Source: Planctomycetota bacterium | GTDB taxonomy: Bacteria; Planctomycetota; UBA1135; GCA-002686595 | Length of the DNA stretch: 52,441 nt | Direction: 5' to 3' | NCBI GenBank assembly: GCA_947484275.1 | Contig: CANKOY010000022.1 | Location: 1 to 52,441, forward strand | In this document: piece by piece, positions 292 through 5,614 of the stretch | Layout of the letters: every line of letters begins with the position of its first letter | Position numbering within the stretch: position 1 is the stretch's first letter | Position numbers and translations under genes: made by a program | Notes under the pieces: generated by a model | The model's input: only the letters and a program-made list of their open reading frames with translations | Told to the model about the DNA's origin: nothing | Databases searched by the model: none

Positions 292-427
292 GCGCCGCGC
301 GCCCGAATCAGCGCACCGGCGCCGCGATCTTGCTCGGCCGCGCAAGCTGCGCGTGGTGGGCCTGGACGCTCTTCACCGCGTACTCGCCCTTGTGCATGGC
401 GGCCAGCGCGCTGACCACGGCGCGGAT
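292..427. repeat. Direct repeat copy A (duplicated carB 3' end)
   Basis: Positions 304-400 are identical to 5491-5587 (97 bp, constant offset 5187). The match continues to 427 with three mismatches (401, 407, 425) and extends upstream to about 292 with a single-base gap. It includes the carB stop codon and roughly 15 bases beyond it. Both copies have the same orientation and bracket a two-gene block. Confidence 0.92.
308..427 (-). pseudogene. carB: carB 3' fragment (last 39 codons plus stop)
   Basis: On the minus strand this stretch encodes the final 39 residues of CarB, from [20 protein letters not shown] to the shared end SKIAAPVR and a TGA stop, identical in protein sequence to intact carB at 5495-8746. 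Homology stops abruptly at 428, and nothing upstream supplies the other roughly 1040 residues, so this is a non-functional relic. The three base differences within 311-427 all fall at codon third positions and are silent. A longer open frame runs through it towards 919, but that extension is antisense to the neighbouring SBBP gene. It is best read as the displaced 3' end left by an insertion downstream of carB. Confidence 0.88.
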
Positions 428-567
428 CCTCGAAGGGGCGGCCCACGCATCAGGCGAACTGTGCGGCCGACGCTGTAAAACCCTTGGCATCCTGGCGGAG
501 GTGGACGTTCGACCAGCGACCTCCGTCGAGTCCCAAACCCGCGCCAATTCTCTGTCCAGGACCGTAG

Positions 568-3105
568 CTACTGGACAGTGATGGCAACCGCGTTGCTCGA
601 GCACCAGCCCTGAGCGCCACAGACGGGCGTGTTGCGGATCAAAAATTGCCCGGCGAAGCGCTTGCCCGGTGGCACGCCCGTCAAGTCGACGTTCGTGCGC
701 ACCCAACCGAATCCGTCGCTGGTGATCGGAATGCGCTTGATCGGGCGATTGGGCTCGAGCCACAGTGCGACTCCGGCGACCTGGATCGGCGTGCTTGCTG
801 CCGTGCCCAGGAGCAGGAATCCCGTCGACATCGGCGGCGCCTGGCTGCACCACAGCGCAAAATCCGGCGTCCCTGAAAGCGGCCATTGCGCAGCTTTTGC
901 TTCCAGCGGGCCACGGCAAGAACGTGTTGAAGCTCCGAGCACCGACTCACCCTCGTACAGAAGATCGAGCTGTGCCAAGGTGATGTCGCGTCCGCCGCCG
1001 AAGTAGGACGGACCAAACGCGCCGGGAGTGGTCGGGAAGCCCGGACCGATCGTGTGGCCGACGACCGTGATTCGGCCGTCGGGGGCGCGCACGACGTCGG
1101 CGCCCCAGTCCTCGGCGAGCGGCGAGCCGACGAACGTGGAATAGAGCAGCTCGCCGCGCGGACCCAGGCGCGTGAGATAAAAGTCGTACGTCACGGGCGG
1201 GTTCCAGTTGTATGCCCCCGGCGTCTCCGGGAATCCGGTGGTGGCTCCCGACCTGCCGGTGACCGTGGCGACGCCGGAGGCATCGACGGCGAGGCCGAAG
1301 GGCGCTTCGTAGTTCGGAGTGCCCCCCAGGTACGTGCCGTAGACGAGCTGGCTGCCTGTCGAATCCAGCCGCGCGACGAAGCCATCAACGAATTGGTTTT
1401 GGCTCGCCGATGGATGCAGCGCTGCCTGCGCCACCCCGGGAGTCACCGGGAAGTTAGGGGAAAGGGTCTCGCCGCCGACGATGACACCGCCGTCGGCATC
1501 CAGGGCGACCGAGAACGCGCGGTCGTCCTGAGATCCGCCGAGGAAGGTCGACCACTCCAGCGCGTCACCGGCAGGCGTCAGCCGTGTCACGAAGGCCTGG
1601 CGCTGAGTTTGGGGACCCGGAGGCACCGTCGAGTACGAACCTGGTGTGACCGGAAACGAGGCGTCACCCGTGTAACCGACCACCGTCACCGCGCCGGAGG
1701 AGCCGATCGCGACGGCGTGCGCTGCGTCCCACAGAAGGGGCCCACCAAGGAACGTGGACCACTCGAGCGTGCTTCCAGTCGGATCGAGGCGAAGGACGAA
1801 AGCATCCTCATTGCCGTTGTACGTCGTGTCGAAGGCGCCCGGCGTCGTCGGAAAGCTCGCGTCGTAGGCGATGCCCACGACGACGGCCGAGCCGTCGGCC
1901 GTCGCGGCCACGCCCTGGGCCAACCCGCCCTGAAAGGCCGCTGGTGCCTCGAGGTAGGTCGAGTAGATGAGCTGATCGCCCATTGGCGACAGCCGCAGCA
2001 CGAAGGCCGCGGTGTCGAGCGCGTTCATGATCGGATCGAACGCGCCAGTGGTCGTTGGGAAATCGGTGGATCTCGTCTGTCCCGCCACGATCGGGGCGCC
2101 CCATTGATCGAGGGCGACGCCGGCCCACGCGGCTGCACCACTGCTTCCACCAATTACGCTCGAGTACACGAGCGCCCCTGTCGAACCCTCTACCCGAAAC
2201 ACGACGACATTGCCGAAGATCGTCCCACTGGGATGCTGGTAGGCGCCTGGAGTCTGCGGGAAAGCCATCGTCCATGCTGCGTGGCCAGCCACAACCAGAT
2301 CTCCACTTGGCGTTCGAGCGAGTCCTATTGGCGTATCCTCGCCCGTCACACTCCCCACGTAGGTGCCCCAAGCGATCTGCGGATCGACGACCAGAGCCTG
2401 TTTCACATCGCGCTCAGGCGCATGCAAGCCAAAACGGGAAGGGCCGAAGGGCAGCCAGAGTCCTTCGATCGACTTGCGCACGCCTCGCGCATCCTGCTGC
2501 CAGCACGCAGGTATGCGCTGCCACAGAATCCCGACCGCCGTGGAGAGCCCGAGGCGCTCGCCGTCGAGAATCAGCGGCCCACCGCCCTCGACCTCGAACC
2601 GCACGACGTCGAGGTCAACTCCCGGCGCGACCTCCACGTCGTATTCGAGCTGCCCGCCGCTCTCGCGCAACACGATGTCGACGCCGTTCCAGGCGCATGT
2701 CAGCCGCAGGCCGCCCCAACGCGGCAAACCCGTTGCCCAATGCGCGGGGTCATTGCCGAGGAAGAAGCTCTCGATTCCCGCCAGCCGCACTTGCGGTTCG
2801 ATGCGACAGTCAGGCGAAGGATTCACAAATCGAATCCGCACGAAGGCTCCGCGCTCGGGGCGCCCCGGCTCCGACAGTTGCAGTCCGATCGCGTCCGGCT
2901 CGACCAGCACGTTGACCGCGCCGACTCGTCCCACGTAGCGCGCCGACGTCTTCCACTGTCCACGATTCTCAACGAAGGCGAGCGTGGTCGACTGCGCGAA
3001 CTGCGCGGCGTTCGCGGCGGTCCCGGGCTCCAGATCCGCAGACGGAGTCGCCTGAAGTGCGAGGAGGGGCAAACAACACAGCGCGATCGGCGGGCACATG
3101 AGCAT
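568..3105 (-). CDS. Secreted SBBP-repeat beta-propeller protein
   Basis: The 845-residue product starts with a signal peptide (MLMCPPIALCCLPLLALQA). An N-terminal module with the FVENRGQW motif follows, as in the DUF7948-type domain found ahead of SBBP repeats. Next come about seven SBBP-type repeats, each with the pattern (V)VVGxTxxxxFPxTPGAF...AFVxRLxxxGxxLxYSTxLGG, expected to fold as an extracellular beta-propeller. A C-terminal domain ends in SNAVAITVQ. The frame is open upstream to 3264, but ATG 3105 was chosen because it begins the signal peptide and has AAGGTGG five bases before it. The gene is divergent from the copper oxidase gene and lies with it between the carB repeats. Partner or substrate is unknown. 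Confidence 0.75.
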   Translation of the reverse strand: MLMCPPIALCCLPLLALQATPSADLEPGTAANAAQFAQSTTLAFVENRGQWKTSARYVGRVGAVNVLVEPDAIGLQLSEPGRPERGAFVRIRFVNPSPDCRIEPQVRLAGIESFFLGNDPAHWATGLPRWGGLRLTCAWNGVDIVLRESGGQLEYDVEVAPGVDLDVVRFEVEGGGPLILDGERLGLSTAVGILWQRIPACWQQDARGVRKSIEGLWLPFGPSRFGLHAPERDVKQALVVDPQIAWGTYVGSVTGEDTPIGLARTPSGDLVVAGHAAWTMAFPQTPGAYQHPSGTIFGNVVVFRVEGSTGALVYSSVIGGSSGAAAWAGVALDQWGAPIVAGQTRSTDFPTTTGAFDPIMNALDTAAFVLRLSPMGDQLIYSTYLEAPAAFQGGLAQGVAATADGSAVVVGIAYDASFPTTPGAFDTTYNGNEDAFVLRLDPTGSTLEWSTFLGGPLLWDAAHAVAIGSSGAVTVVGYTGDASFPVTPGSYSTVPPGPQTQRQAFVTRLTPAGDALEWSTFLGGSQDDRAFSVALDADGGVIVGGETLSPNFPVTPGVAQAALHPSASQNQFVDGFVARLDSTGSQLVYGTYLGGTPNYEAPFGLAVDASGVATVTGRSGATTGFPETPGAYNWNPPVTYDFYLTRLGPRGELLYSTFVGSPLAEDWGADVVRAPDGRITVVGHTIGPGFPTTPGAFGPSYFGGGRDITLAQLDLLYEGESVLGASTRSCRGPLEAKAAQWPLSGTPDFALWCSQAPPMSTGFLLLGTAASTPIQVAGVALWLEPNRPIKRIPITSDGFGWVRTNVDLTGVPPGKRFAGQFLIRNTPVCGAQGWCSSNAVAITVQ

Positions 3106-5388: not shown

Positions 5389-5479
5389 TCGAGAGTTCGA
5401 ACCCGCTTGCGACGGACACGCAGCCGCGTTGGATTGCCGCGACCCGACACCGCATCATGACGGGATCAGACTGCGGATA

Positions 5480-5614
5480 GCGCCGCGCGCCGAATCAGCG
5501 CACCGGCGCCGCGATCTTGCTCGGCCGCGCAAGCTGCGCGTGGTGGGCCTGGACGCTCTTCACCGCGTACTCGCCCTTGTGCATGGCCGCCAGGGCGCTG
5601 ACCACGGCGCGAAT
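5480..5614. repeat. Direct repeat copy B (3' end of intact carB)
   Basis: This is the partner of the repeat at 292-427. It covers the last 39 codons of the intact carB gene, its stop codon, and about 15 bases downstream. After 5614 the two copies share nothing. The distance between the copies (5187 bases) defines the size of the putative inserted unit. Confidence 0.92.

What the first reader, a model, noticed from the sequence alone, without database searches (positions are those of the whole stretch)
292..5614. Two-gene cassette flanked by direct repeats of the carB 3' end
A 124-bp stretch containing the last 39 codons of carB, its stop and about 15 bases beyond is present twice in direct orientation, exactly 5187 bases apart. 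The copy next to intact carB is functional; the distal copy is a relic. Between them lie only the SBBP protein gene and the copper radical oxidase gene. This is the layout produced when an integrating DNA recombines at the 3' end of a housekeeping gene and brings its own replacement end. No recombinase is left in the block. The pair may be a small mobile unit carrying a secreted oxidase, or a remnant of a larger island.
Basis: partly seen in the sequence, partly recalled or inferred. Interest (0 to 1): 0.78.

Follow-up and report, generated by a model that had tools for sequence, protein, structure and literature searches.

The report
Gene cassette behind a swapped gene end
Two neighbouring genes, likely for a secreted copper enzyme and its propeller-like partner, lie between the intact end of a housekeeping gene and a cut-off second copy of that end, and other genomes of the same bacterial family show the same layout at this and other genes, so such genes were likely brought in by recombination with a relative's DNA that replaced the gene's end.

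Summary
The repeat is real: 136 nt (97%) of the carB 3' end, twice, 5187 nt apart, with a DUF7948/SBBP-type gene and a copper-radical-oxidase gene between. The layout recurs: nine blocks in 7 genomes of 6 genera of one family, three at carB, one each at groEL, cstA, a DEAD-box helicase, a transglutaminase, an acetyltransferase and a tRNA-Val gene. No recombinase was seen in them. Young copies differ mostly at synonymous sites (30 of 38; neutral about 11) and the tRNA pair by compensatory changes, so both copies were working ends in different lineages; this argues strongly against duplication within the cell. Relic length at carB varies (120, 173, 1150 nt), and one pair is identical for 845 nt, then divergent, like a crossover. 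I favour homology-anchored insertion of a relative's DNA with an illegitimate far joint. Against: the relic lies 292 nt from a draft contig's end; no empty site was found; one similar pair sits beside a tyrosine recombinase; and the excess of such repeats at SBBP genes over control regions is marginal (6 of 56 against 1 of 54, p 0.06). New variant of a known kind.

The parts
1..267 (+). C-terminal 88 residues of a DUF3526 (ABC-2-type permease) gene, cut by the contig end
   Evidence: PF12040 E 4e-6; only DUF3526 match found in the own genome
292..427 (-). displaced carB 3' end (relic): 39 codons, stop and about 12-15 nt beyond
   Evidence: three codon differences from carB, all synonymous
428..5479 (.). 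inserted block (cassette), 5052 nt
   Evidence: interval between the two repeat copies
568..3264 (-). DUF7948 / SBBP-type protein gene, 898 aa, likely exported (signal-like start read by eye)
   Evidence: a homologue lies beside the oxidase homologue in the 7 family loci where the oxidase match covers most of its length
3313..5388 (+). copper-radical-oxidase-like gene (galactose oxidase family), 691 aa, likely secreted (signal-like start read by eye)
   Evidence: PF09118; aligned to galactose oxidase with the conserved Tyr-His and the later His; NF052501 GlxA far below its cut-off
5480..5614 (-). gene-adjacent copy of the repeat: the working end of carB and 12-15 nt beyond
5495..8746 (-). carB, carbamoyl-phosphate synthase large chain, intact, 1083 aa

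Best explanation
The two-gene block lies between two copies of the carB 3' end whose only coding differences are synonymous, and it was likely inserted when DNA from a related cell, carrying its own carB end followed by these two genes, recombined with carB. Step by step: incoming DNA paired with the resident carB by homology and crossed over inside the gene (inferred here; a crossover-like switch is visible in the G065 case). The donor's carB end and the genes behind it then became part of the chromosome. The far, non-homologous end of the incoming DNA was joined illegitimately to a point inside the resident carB (inferred). The resident's own last 120 nt of carB were thereby pushed behind the block as a dead relic. 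This is homology-facilitated illegitimate recombination (HFIR), which would need RecA but no dedicated recombinase. The donor end keeps carB working, so insertion at a gene's 3' end would cost little. The cargo, an SBBP-type/oxidase pair found side by side in seven other family loci, is likely exported and would act outside the cytoplasm.
For: (1) Recurrence with different host genes: 9 blocks in 7 genomes, each behind a 3' end with the relic at the far side. (2) carB itself was used three times with different cargo: G000, G064, G065; order-wide 3 of 145 genomes with a carB C-terminus show a second copy. (3) Young copies differ mainly at synonymous sites (synonymous/other codons): carB 3/0, groEL 5/1, GNAT 4/0, G065 carB 11/1, G064 carB 7/6; pooled 30 of 38 against a neutral 0.29 (highest of the three estimates made on the carB end), p 3e-10; all relics pooled 44 of 86, p 1e-5. 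Old relics look neutral (14 of 48) and two carry an in-frame stop. (4) The tRNA-Val pair differs by compensatory T-stem changes (alignment; pairing read by eye). (5) G065: 1150-nt repeat, 845 nt identical, 11 of 12 interior differences in the last 273 nt, p 1e-6, as expected if only the last part came from a donor. (6) Relic lengths at carB of 120, 173 and 1150 nt argue against one fixed attachment site. (7) No PF00589 match lies in the 7 blocks of the five block-bearing genomes searched for it.
Against: No donor or empty-site allele of close kin was found, so the crossover and the far joint are inferred. The window's relic is only 292 nt from a contig end of a draft genome. With 3 differences the synonymous test on the window alone is weak (p 0.015-0.025). 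All three lie within 27 of 120 nt at the inner edge (p 0.01), which HFIR does not predict specifically. The blocks are compact, with whole genes and no obvious truncated neighbours, whereas random far joints should often leave gene fragments. The two stacked GNAT relics start within about 11 nt of each other, and the tRNA-Val relic starts at the anticodon loop; both fit site-specific integration better. One SBBP/oxidase pair (L104) sits about 1 kb from a tyrosine recombinase gene. Two of the nine blocks were found with a C-terminal query, which can only find 3' ends. The excess of repeat-spanned SBBP loci over controls is marginal when each control region counts once (6 of 56 against 1 of 54, p 0.06; without the window and one weak pair 4 of 54, p 0.18).
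Confidence: 0.5

Rival explanations
1. Site-specific integration: a tyrosine (or other) recombinase, now lost or acting in trans, inserted a small element at an attachment site in the 3' end of carB, and the element carried a replacement end, as prophage e14 does in icd.
For: The geometry is that of e14/icd, where a 163-bp icd end is duplicated (PMC6379469 passages). All 9 host sites are 3' ends (two found by a 3'-only query). The tRNA-Val block is a textbook site, and an element with recombinase that repeats 54 nt of tRNA-Arg, from tRNA position 24 on, exists in the family (L216). The two GNAT relics share their start within about 11 nt. L104 has a recombinase beside the same gene pair.
Against: No recombinase seen in the 9 blocks. 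carB boundaries differ by about 1 kb among three genomes. The G065 copies are identical for 845 nt before diverging, whereas a replaced end should differ throughout. No symmetric core at the six boundaries tested (p 0.44, 0.05, 0.98, 0.49, 0.50, 0.97). Of 20 recombinase loci screened three hold a spaced repeat: one at a tRNA (L216), one within recombinase-gene pieces (L203), one not followed (L215).
Confidence: 0.22
2. Assembly chimera: two co-occurring strains, one with and one without the block, were joined end to end, so that two alleles of the carB end appear in one contig.
For: The genome is a 101-contig draft, the relic is at a contig end, and synonymous differences are what two strain alleles would show.
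Against: No N in the window. The same layout occurs in 6 other assemblies, and relics with in-frame stops (GNAT second copy, helicase) are unlikely to be strain alleles. The distance from relic start to first difference varies (about 2, 17, 42, 54 nt, read) and fits no single assembler word length.
Confidence: 0.15
3. Duplication from within: transposition with a long target-site duplication, or tandem duplication followed by insertion, made the second copy in the same cell.
For: In L108 the repeat spans the 3' ends of both convergent genes, as a target-site duplication would.
Against: Copies made in one cell start identical and the spare one drifts freely; the young pairs instead show mostly synonymous differences and compensatory tRNA changes. 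No inverted repeat of 40 nt or more in the window; neither of the two cassette genes is a transposase.
Confidence: 0.06

Closest known systems
Prophage e14 in icd of E. coli (replacement 3' end, displaced icd' fragment of 163 bp)
   Same: Incoming DNA supplies a new functional 3' end of a housekeeping gene; the old end stays as a direct-repeat relic at the far side (passages of PMC6379469).
   Different: e14 is a prophage with its own integrase and one fixed site (partly recalled); here the blocks have 1-2 cargo genes, no recombinase seen, many host genes and, at carB, variable boundaries.
Homology-facilitated illegitimate recombination and orphan 3' ends (T6SS immunity arrays in Vibrio cholerae, Rhs C-terminal displacement)
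   Same: A homologous anchor on one side and a non-homologous joint on the other; the old 3' part is shifted downstream and can stack, as proposed in PMC5361080 (passages).
   Different: There the anchor and cargo belong to one toxin system; here the anchors are unrelated housekeeping genes and the cargo is likely exported propeller proteins, an oxidase, a DUF3050 protein or a defence-type reverse transcriptase.
Small variable segments at conserved gene borders (PMC2884548)
   Same: Small species-level insertions without known mobile elements, attributed largely to illegitimate recombination, some flanked by direct repeats (passages).
   Different: There most repeats are under 30 bp; here they are 55-1150 nt and are gene 3' ends.

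Membership tests
Integrative element at a gene 3' end (e14/icd type) | replacement 3' end next to the gene and displaced end at the far border | tested here: met
Integrative element at a gene 3' end (e14/icd type) | site-specific recombinase in the element | tested here: not met
   the two genes of 428-5479 are not recombinases; own genome has 4 PF00589 matches, none in C22; serine recombinases were not searched by profile
Integrative element at a gene 3' end (e14/icd type) | fixed crossover site with a common core | tested here: not met
   three carB insertions with inner boundaries 120, 173 and 1150 nt from the stop; no symmetric core at six boundaries. Two GNAT relics do share a start
HFIR-type insertion | imported homologous sequence on one side (anchor) | tested here: met
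   synonymous divergence of the two ends and the identity switch in G065; direction of import not shown for the window
HFIR-type insertion | illegitimate joint with no or little homology on the other side | tested here: inconclusive
   no similarity beyond the repeat at the inner edge, but the donor sequence is unknown, so microhomology cannot be measured
HFIR-type insertion | RecA dependence and uptake of donor DNA | not testable with these tools
   needs an experiment
Transposon with target-site duplication | terminal inverted repeats and a transposase | tested here: not met
   no inverted repeat of 40 nt or more in the window (shorter ones not excluded); neither cassette gene is a transposase
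Transposon with target-site duplication | copies identical at origin, spare copy drifts neutrally | tested here: not met
   30 of 38 codon differences synonymous in young pairs; for the window alone 3 of 3
Copper radical oxidase (AA5, galactose/glyoxal oxidase) | C-terminal galactose-oxidase-like domain with Tyr-His and His copper ligands | tested here: met
   PF09118 and alignment to solved galactose oxidases; that these residues bind copper is recalled
Copper radical oxidase (AA5, galactose/glyoxal oxidase) | Cys-Tyr cofactor pair in the propeller domain | tested here: inconclusive
   an FCxG motif and an SYPR motif are seen by eye (motifs recalled); the profile alignment did not cover them

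The most novel reading that the evidence does not exclude
Conserved 3' ends of housekeeping genes serve a whole bacterial family as docking handles for recombinase-free gene cassettes. Each cassette travels with a copy of the end of its host gene, enters a relative by homologous recombination at that end, displaces the resident end, and can stack. Exported propeller proteins and their oxidase partner are frequent cargo, with defence genes as occasional riders.
Probability: 0.27. Interest if true: 0.75.

Novelty: new variant of a known kind. Interest (0 to 1): 0.55.

Why it matters
Many small insertions in bacterial genomes have no visible mover. Here the mark they leave, a displaced and once functional gene end, makes the event readable: it shows where the DNA entered, that it came from a relative, and in one case apparently where the crossover fell. 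The mark can be searched for in any genome, so the share of gene gain that runs on homology at conserved gene ends rather than on integrases becomes measurable. It also shows carB as a repeated entry point in this family.

Tried and rejected
A symmetric recombinase core at the inner boundaries was suspected because carB and GNAT share CGCCGTGGT near the boundary and groEL shows a 6-bp inverted repeat. Against random positions none of the six boundaries tested was significant (lowest p 0.05, groEL); it was dropped. G064, G065 and L108 were not tested. Shared sequence at the cassette ends: in the part of the output seen, the only match below E 0.001 between different cassettes is 40 nt of the window and L108 distal ends (E 1e-4); the output was cut, so no motif is claimed or excluded. 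Phage records hold nothing like the repeat. The scan of public genome contigs for the oxidase gave two remote loci (27-37%). The protein search lists nothing between the window's own oxidase and one of 54% identity. A reverse transcriptase as mover: the groEL cargo is RT_UG39, a candidate defence RT, with no full-length relative in 80 other family genomes, so it is treated as cargo. Strong repeats in G084:C5 are a dispersed repeat family. The 474-nt pair in L215 was not followed. In L104 a diverged repeat (63 nt at 84%, 152 nt at 70%) about 18 kb apart spans the SBBP/oxidase pair and the recombinase; it lies in coding sequence that looks paralogous by eye, was outside the distance limit, and is not counted. 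Weak pairs in L107 and L157, and the 53-nt pair in L158 counted, are not among the nine. G086 showed a short groEL frame; it ends at the contig end, so it is no relic.

Paper searches for print precedents. Their listings showed no report of housekeeping-gene 3' ends displaced by such cassettes in this group; I saw listings and passages only, and most subscription journals are outside the library.

Counting notes. A first-filed version gave Fisher p 0.0013 for 6 of 56 SBBP loci against 1 of 162 control segments; the 162 are three segments in each of 54 regions and are not independent. Per region it is 1 of 54, p 0.06; without the window and L158, 4 of 54 against 1 of 54, p 0.18; for repeats of 100 nt or more 4 of 56 against 0 of 60, p 0.05. 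Nine of the 55 SBBP loci are shorter than 9 kb, so repeats there can be missed. The young/old split was made after seeing the data. From the codon counts I dropped one non-synonymous difference at an alignment edge in GNAT and one in G065; with them the young count is 30 of 40. The four differences in the transporter part of L108 and the tRNA pair are in no count. The cstA and groEL cases were met in passing and the G064 and G065 cases by a targeted carB search, so nine is not a rate. The 55 SBBP loci are those I picked from the listed matches, not all SBBP genes of the family.
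Full report
OBSERVATION. The repeat is in the sequence as described: 303-427 and 5490-5614, 125 nt, 98%, start-to-start 5187, or 136 nt with one indel, 97%. It covers the last 39 codons of carB, the stop and about 12-15 nt. Only two copies were found in the own genome, and it is the only direct repeat of 40 nt or more in the window. The block between (428-5479, 5052 nt) holds a DUF7948/SBBP-type gene (568-3264, -) and a galactose-oxidase-family gene (3313-5388, +). 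The oxidase aligns to solved galactose oxidases at the Tyr-His and the later His; the Cys and the other Tyr are seen only by eye. The window is a complete contig of a draft genome (101 contigs, 87.9% complete, 2.5% contaminated). The relic is therefore 292 nt from a contig end, and the flanking 'permease' is an 88-residue fragment (PF12040) with no other DUF3526 match found in the genome.

THE CARGO IS A CONSERVED PAIR. In the 81 genomes of the family, 7 loci other than the window match the oxidase over most of its length (32-40% identity, one piece 51%; G079, G071, G018, G084, three in G096). All 7 have a relative of the SBBP-type gene next to it, 5 divergent as in the window and 2 in tandem (coordinates compared by me). 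In the protein collection the nearest oxidase other than the window's own has 54% identity. The pair thus behaves as a module found in different places.

THE LAYOUT RECURS. I screened 55 further SBBP loci for direct repeats around the gene. In one search, with the window, 6 of 56 are spanned by a repeat of at least 50 nt and 75%; one (L158) is weak and was not followed. In 54 control regions 1 is spanned, by a member of a dispersed repeat family. Counted per region the excess is marginal (p 0.06), so a special tie to SBBP genes is not shown. The clear cases, with what the repeat is: L108 (G096) 299 nt across the 3' ends of a CitMHS transporter gene and a transglutaminase gene, cargo SBBP + oxidase; L110 (G084) 158 nt, 3' end of a DEAD-box helicase gene, cargo oxidase + SBBP; L112 (G006) 55 nt, 3' part of tRNA-Val, cargo SBBP; L145 (G061) 157 nt, 3' end of a GNAT acetyltransferase gene, cargo FG-GAP protein + SBBP, with a second relic 0.5 kb further on. 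Two more turned up in passing with other cargo: L116 (G061) 235 nt at the end of cstA with a DUF3050 gene, and L187 (G006) about 314 nt at the end of groEL with a UG39-type reverse transcriptase gene. A targeted search for extra carB C-termini found two more among the 75 of 81 family genomes with a match, and none among the 70 matching genomes of other families of the order. In G064 the cargo is a PD40 and an FG-GAP propeller protein and the relic 173 nt; in G065 the cargo is one gene without a Pfam match and the repeat 1150 nt. That makes 9 blocks in 7 genomes and 6 genera, each behind a 3' end, with the relic at the far side. Two of the nine were found with a query that can only find 3' ends.

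THE TWO ENDS COME FROM DIFFERENT LINEAGES. In the window all 3 codon differences are synonymous (chance 0.015-0.025). Synonymous/other counts elsewhere: groEL 5/1, first GNAT relic 4/0, G065 carB 11/1, G064 carB 7/6, together with the window 30/8 (p 3e-10 against 0.29). Two edge differences, both non-synonymous, were left out; with them 30/10. Older relics look neutral (second GNAT 7/14, helicase 5/12, cstA 2/4, transglutaminase 0/4), and two carry an in-frame stop. The young/old split was made after the fact; all pooled, 44 of 86 are synonymous (p 1e-5). In the tRNA-Val pair the T-stems differ by paired changes, so both ends were parts of working tRNAs (alignment, pairing read by eye). A copy made within the cell would start identical and decay freely; these ends diverged while in use, so one of each young pair was most likely imported.

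HOW IT WAS IMPORTED. Recombinase integration (e14 in icd is the model; passages) and HFIR give the same picture at first sight. Three results favour HFIR. First, at carB the relic starts 120, 173 and 1150 nt from the stop in three genomes, which one attachment site would not do. Second, in G065 the two copies are identical over 845 nt and then differ at 11 codons in the last 273 nt (p 1e-6), as if the resident gene had been left unchanged up to a crossover and only its end imported. Third, no recombinase was seen in the nine blocks: PF00589 finds none in the seven blocks of G000, G096, G084, G006 and G061, and the ORF lists and Pfam results of the G064 and G065 blocks show none. Serine recombinases were not searched. 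Results for a recombinase: the tRNA-Val relic starts at the anticodon loop (position 32 of the tRNA); a true element with recombinase in G018 also repeats the 3' part of its tRNA, from position 24 of tRNA-Arg (L216); the two GNAT relics start within about 11 nt; and in L104 the SBBP/oxidase pair lies about 1 kb from a PF00589 gene. The nine need not share one mechanism, and the tRNA case may well be a decayed integrase element. A symmetric core was not supported at the six boundaries tested.

CONTEXT OF carB. None of 20 relatives has a tblastn match to the permease fragment, SBBP-type gene or oxidase in the stretch fetched behind carB (0.5-11.9 kb). In 14 of 20 a gene for a type II secretion protein L-like (GspL/PilM-type) protein is convergent with carB (PF05134 E 2e-5, just under its cut-off; PilM is my recall). 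In 7 it lies within about 0.8 kb of the carB stop and in 7 it is 2.0-4.1 kb away with other genes between, for example a glucose/sorbosone dehydrogenase-like gene in G007. The gap behind carB is thus a place where genes come and go in this family; no carB relic was found in these 20 (one 35-nt inverted match in G020).

VERDICT. Observation confirmed; interpretation right about a replaced end, doubtful about a recombinase. The layout is a new variant of a known kind (3'-end displacement by imported DNA), notable for its spread over housekeeping genes. The main open risk for the window itself is the draft assembly at the contig end.

Noticed in passing
L187 3735-5423 (G006:C129): UG39-type reverse transcriptase gene (PADLOC RT_UG39, E 8e-150) between groEL and a displaced 314-nt groEL end; a defence-type gene in the same layout.
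   Followed up: partly
L216 9386-17852 (G018:C80): 8.4-kb element at tRNA-Arg with a 54-nt identical repeat and a tyrosine recombinase gene next to it; looks like a small integrative element.
   Followed up: partly
L104 4949-15424 (G096:C42): SBBP/oxidase pair in a region that also holds a TIR-domain protein gene and a tyrosine recombinase gene; possibly a larger island.
   Followed up: partly
L065-L084, downstream of carB: A type II secretion protein L-like gene is convergent with carB in 14 of 20 relatives, 2.0-4.1 kb away in 7 of the 14.
   Followed up: partly
L108 7333-7700 and 12671-13044: The repeat spans the 3' ends of two convergent genes and the relic of the transglutaminase gene has internal deletions relative to the intact gene.
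   Followed up: partly
L076, about 60-95 nt behind carB: An inverted copy of the last 35 nt of carB (91%) right behind the gene in G020; possibly a terminator-like hairpin.
   Followed up: no
G084:C5 10184-37222 (L179, L180): Dispersed repeat family of about 80-240 nt, at least six copies, 64-95% alike.
   Followed up: no
L158 3331-3383 and 12168-12220 (G007:C7): 53-nt direct repeat (87%) spanning an SBBP gene, 8.8 kb apart; nature unknown.
   Followed up: no
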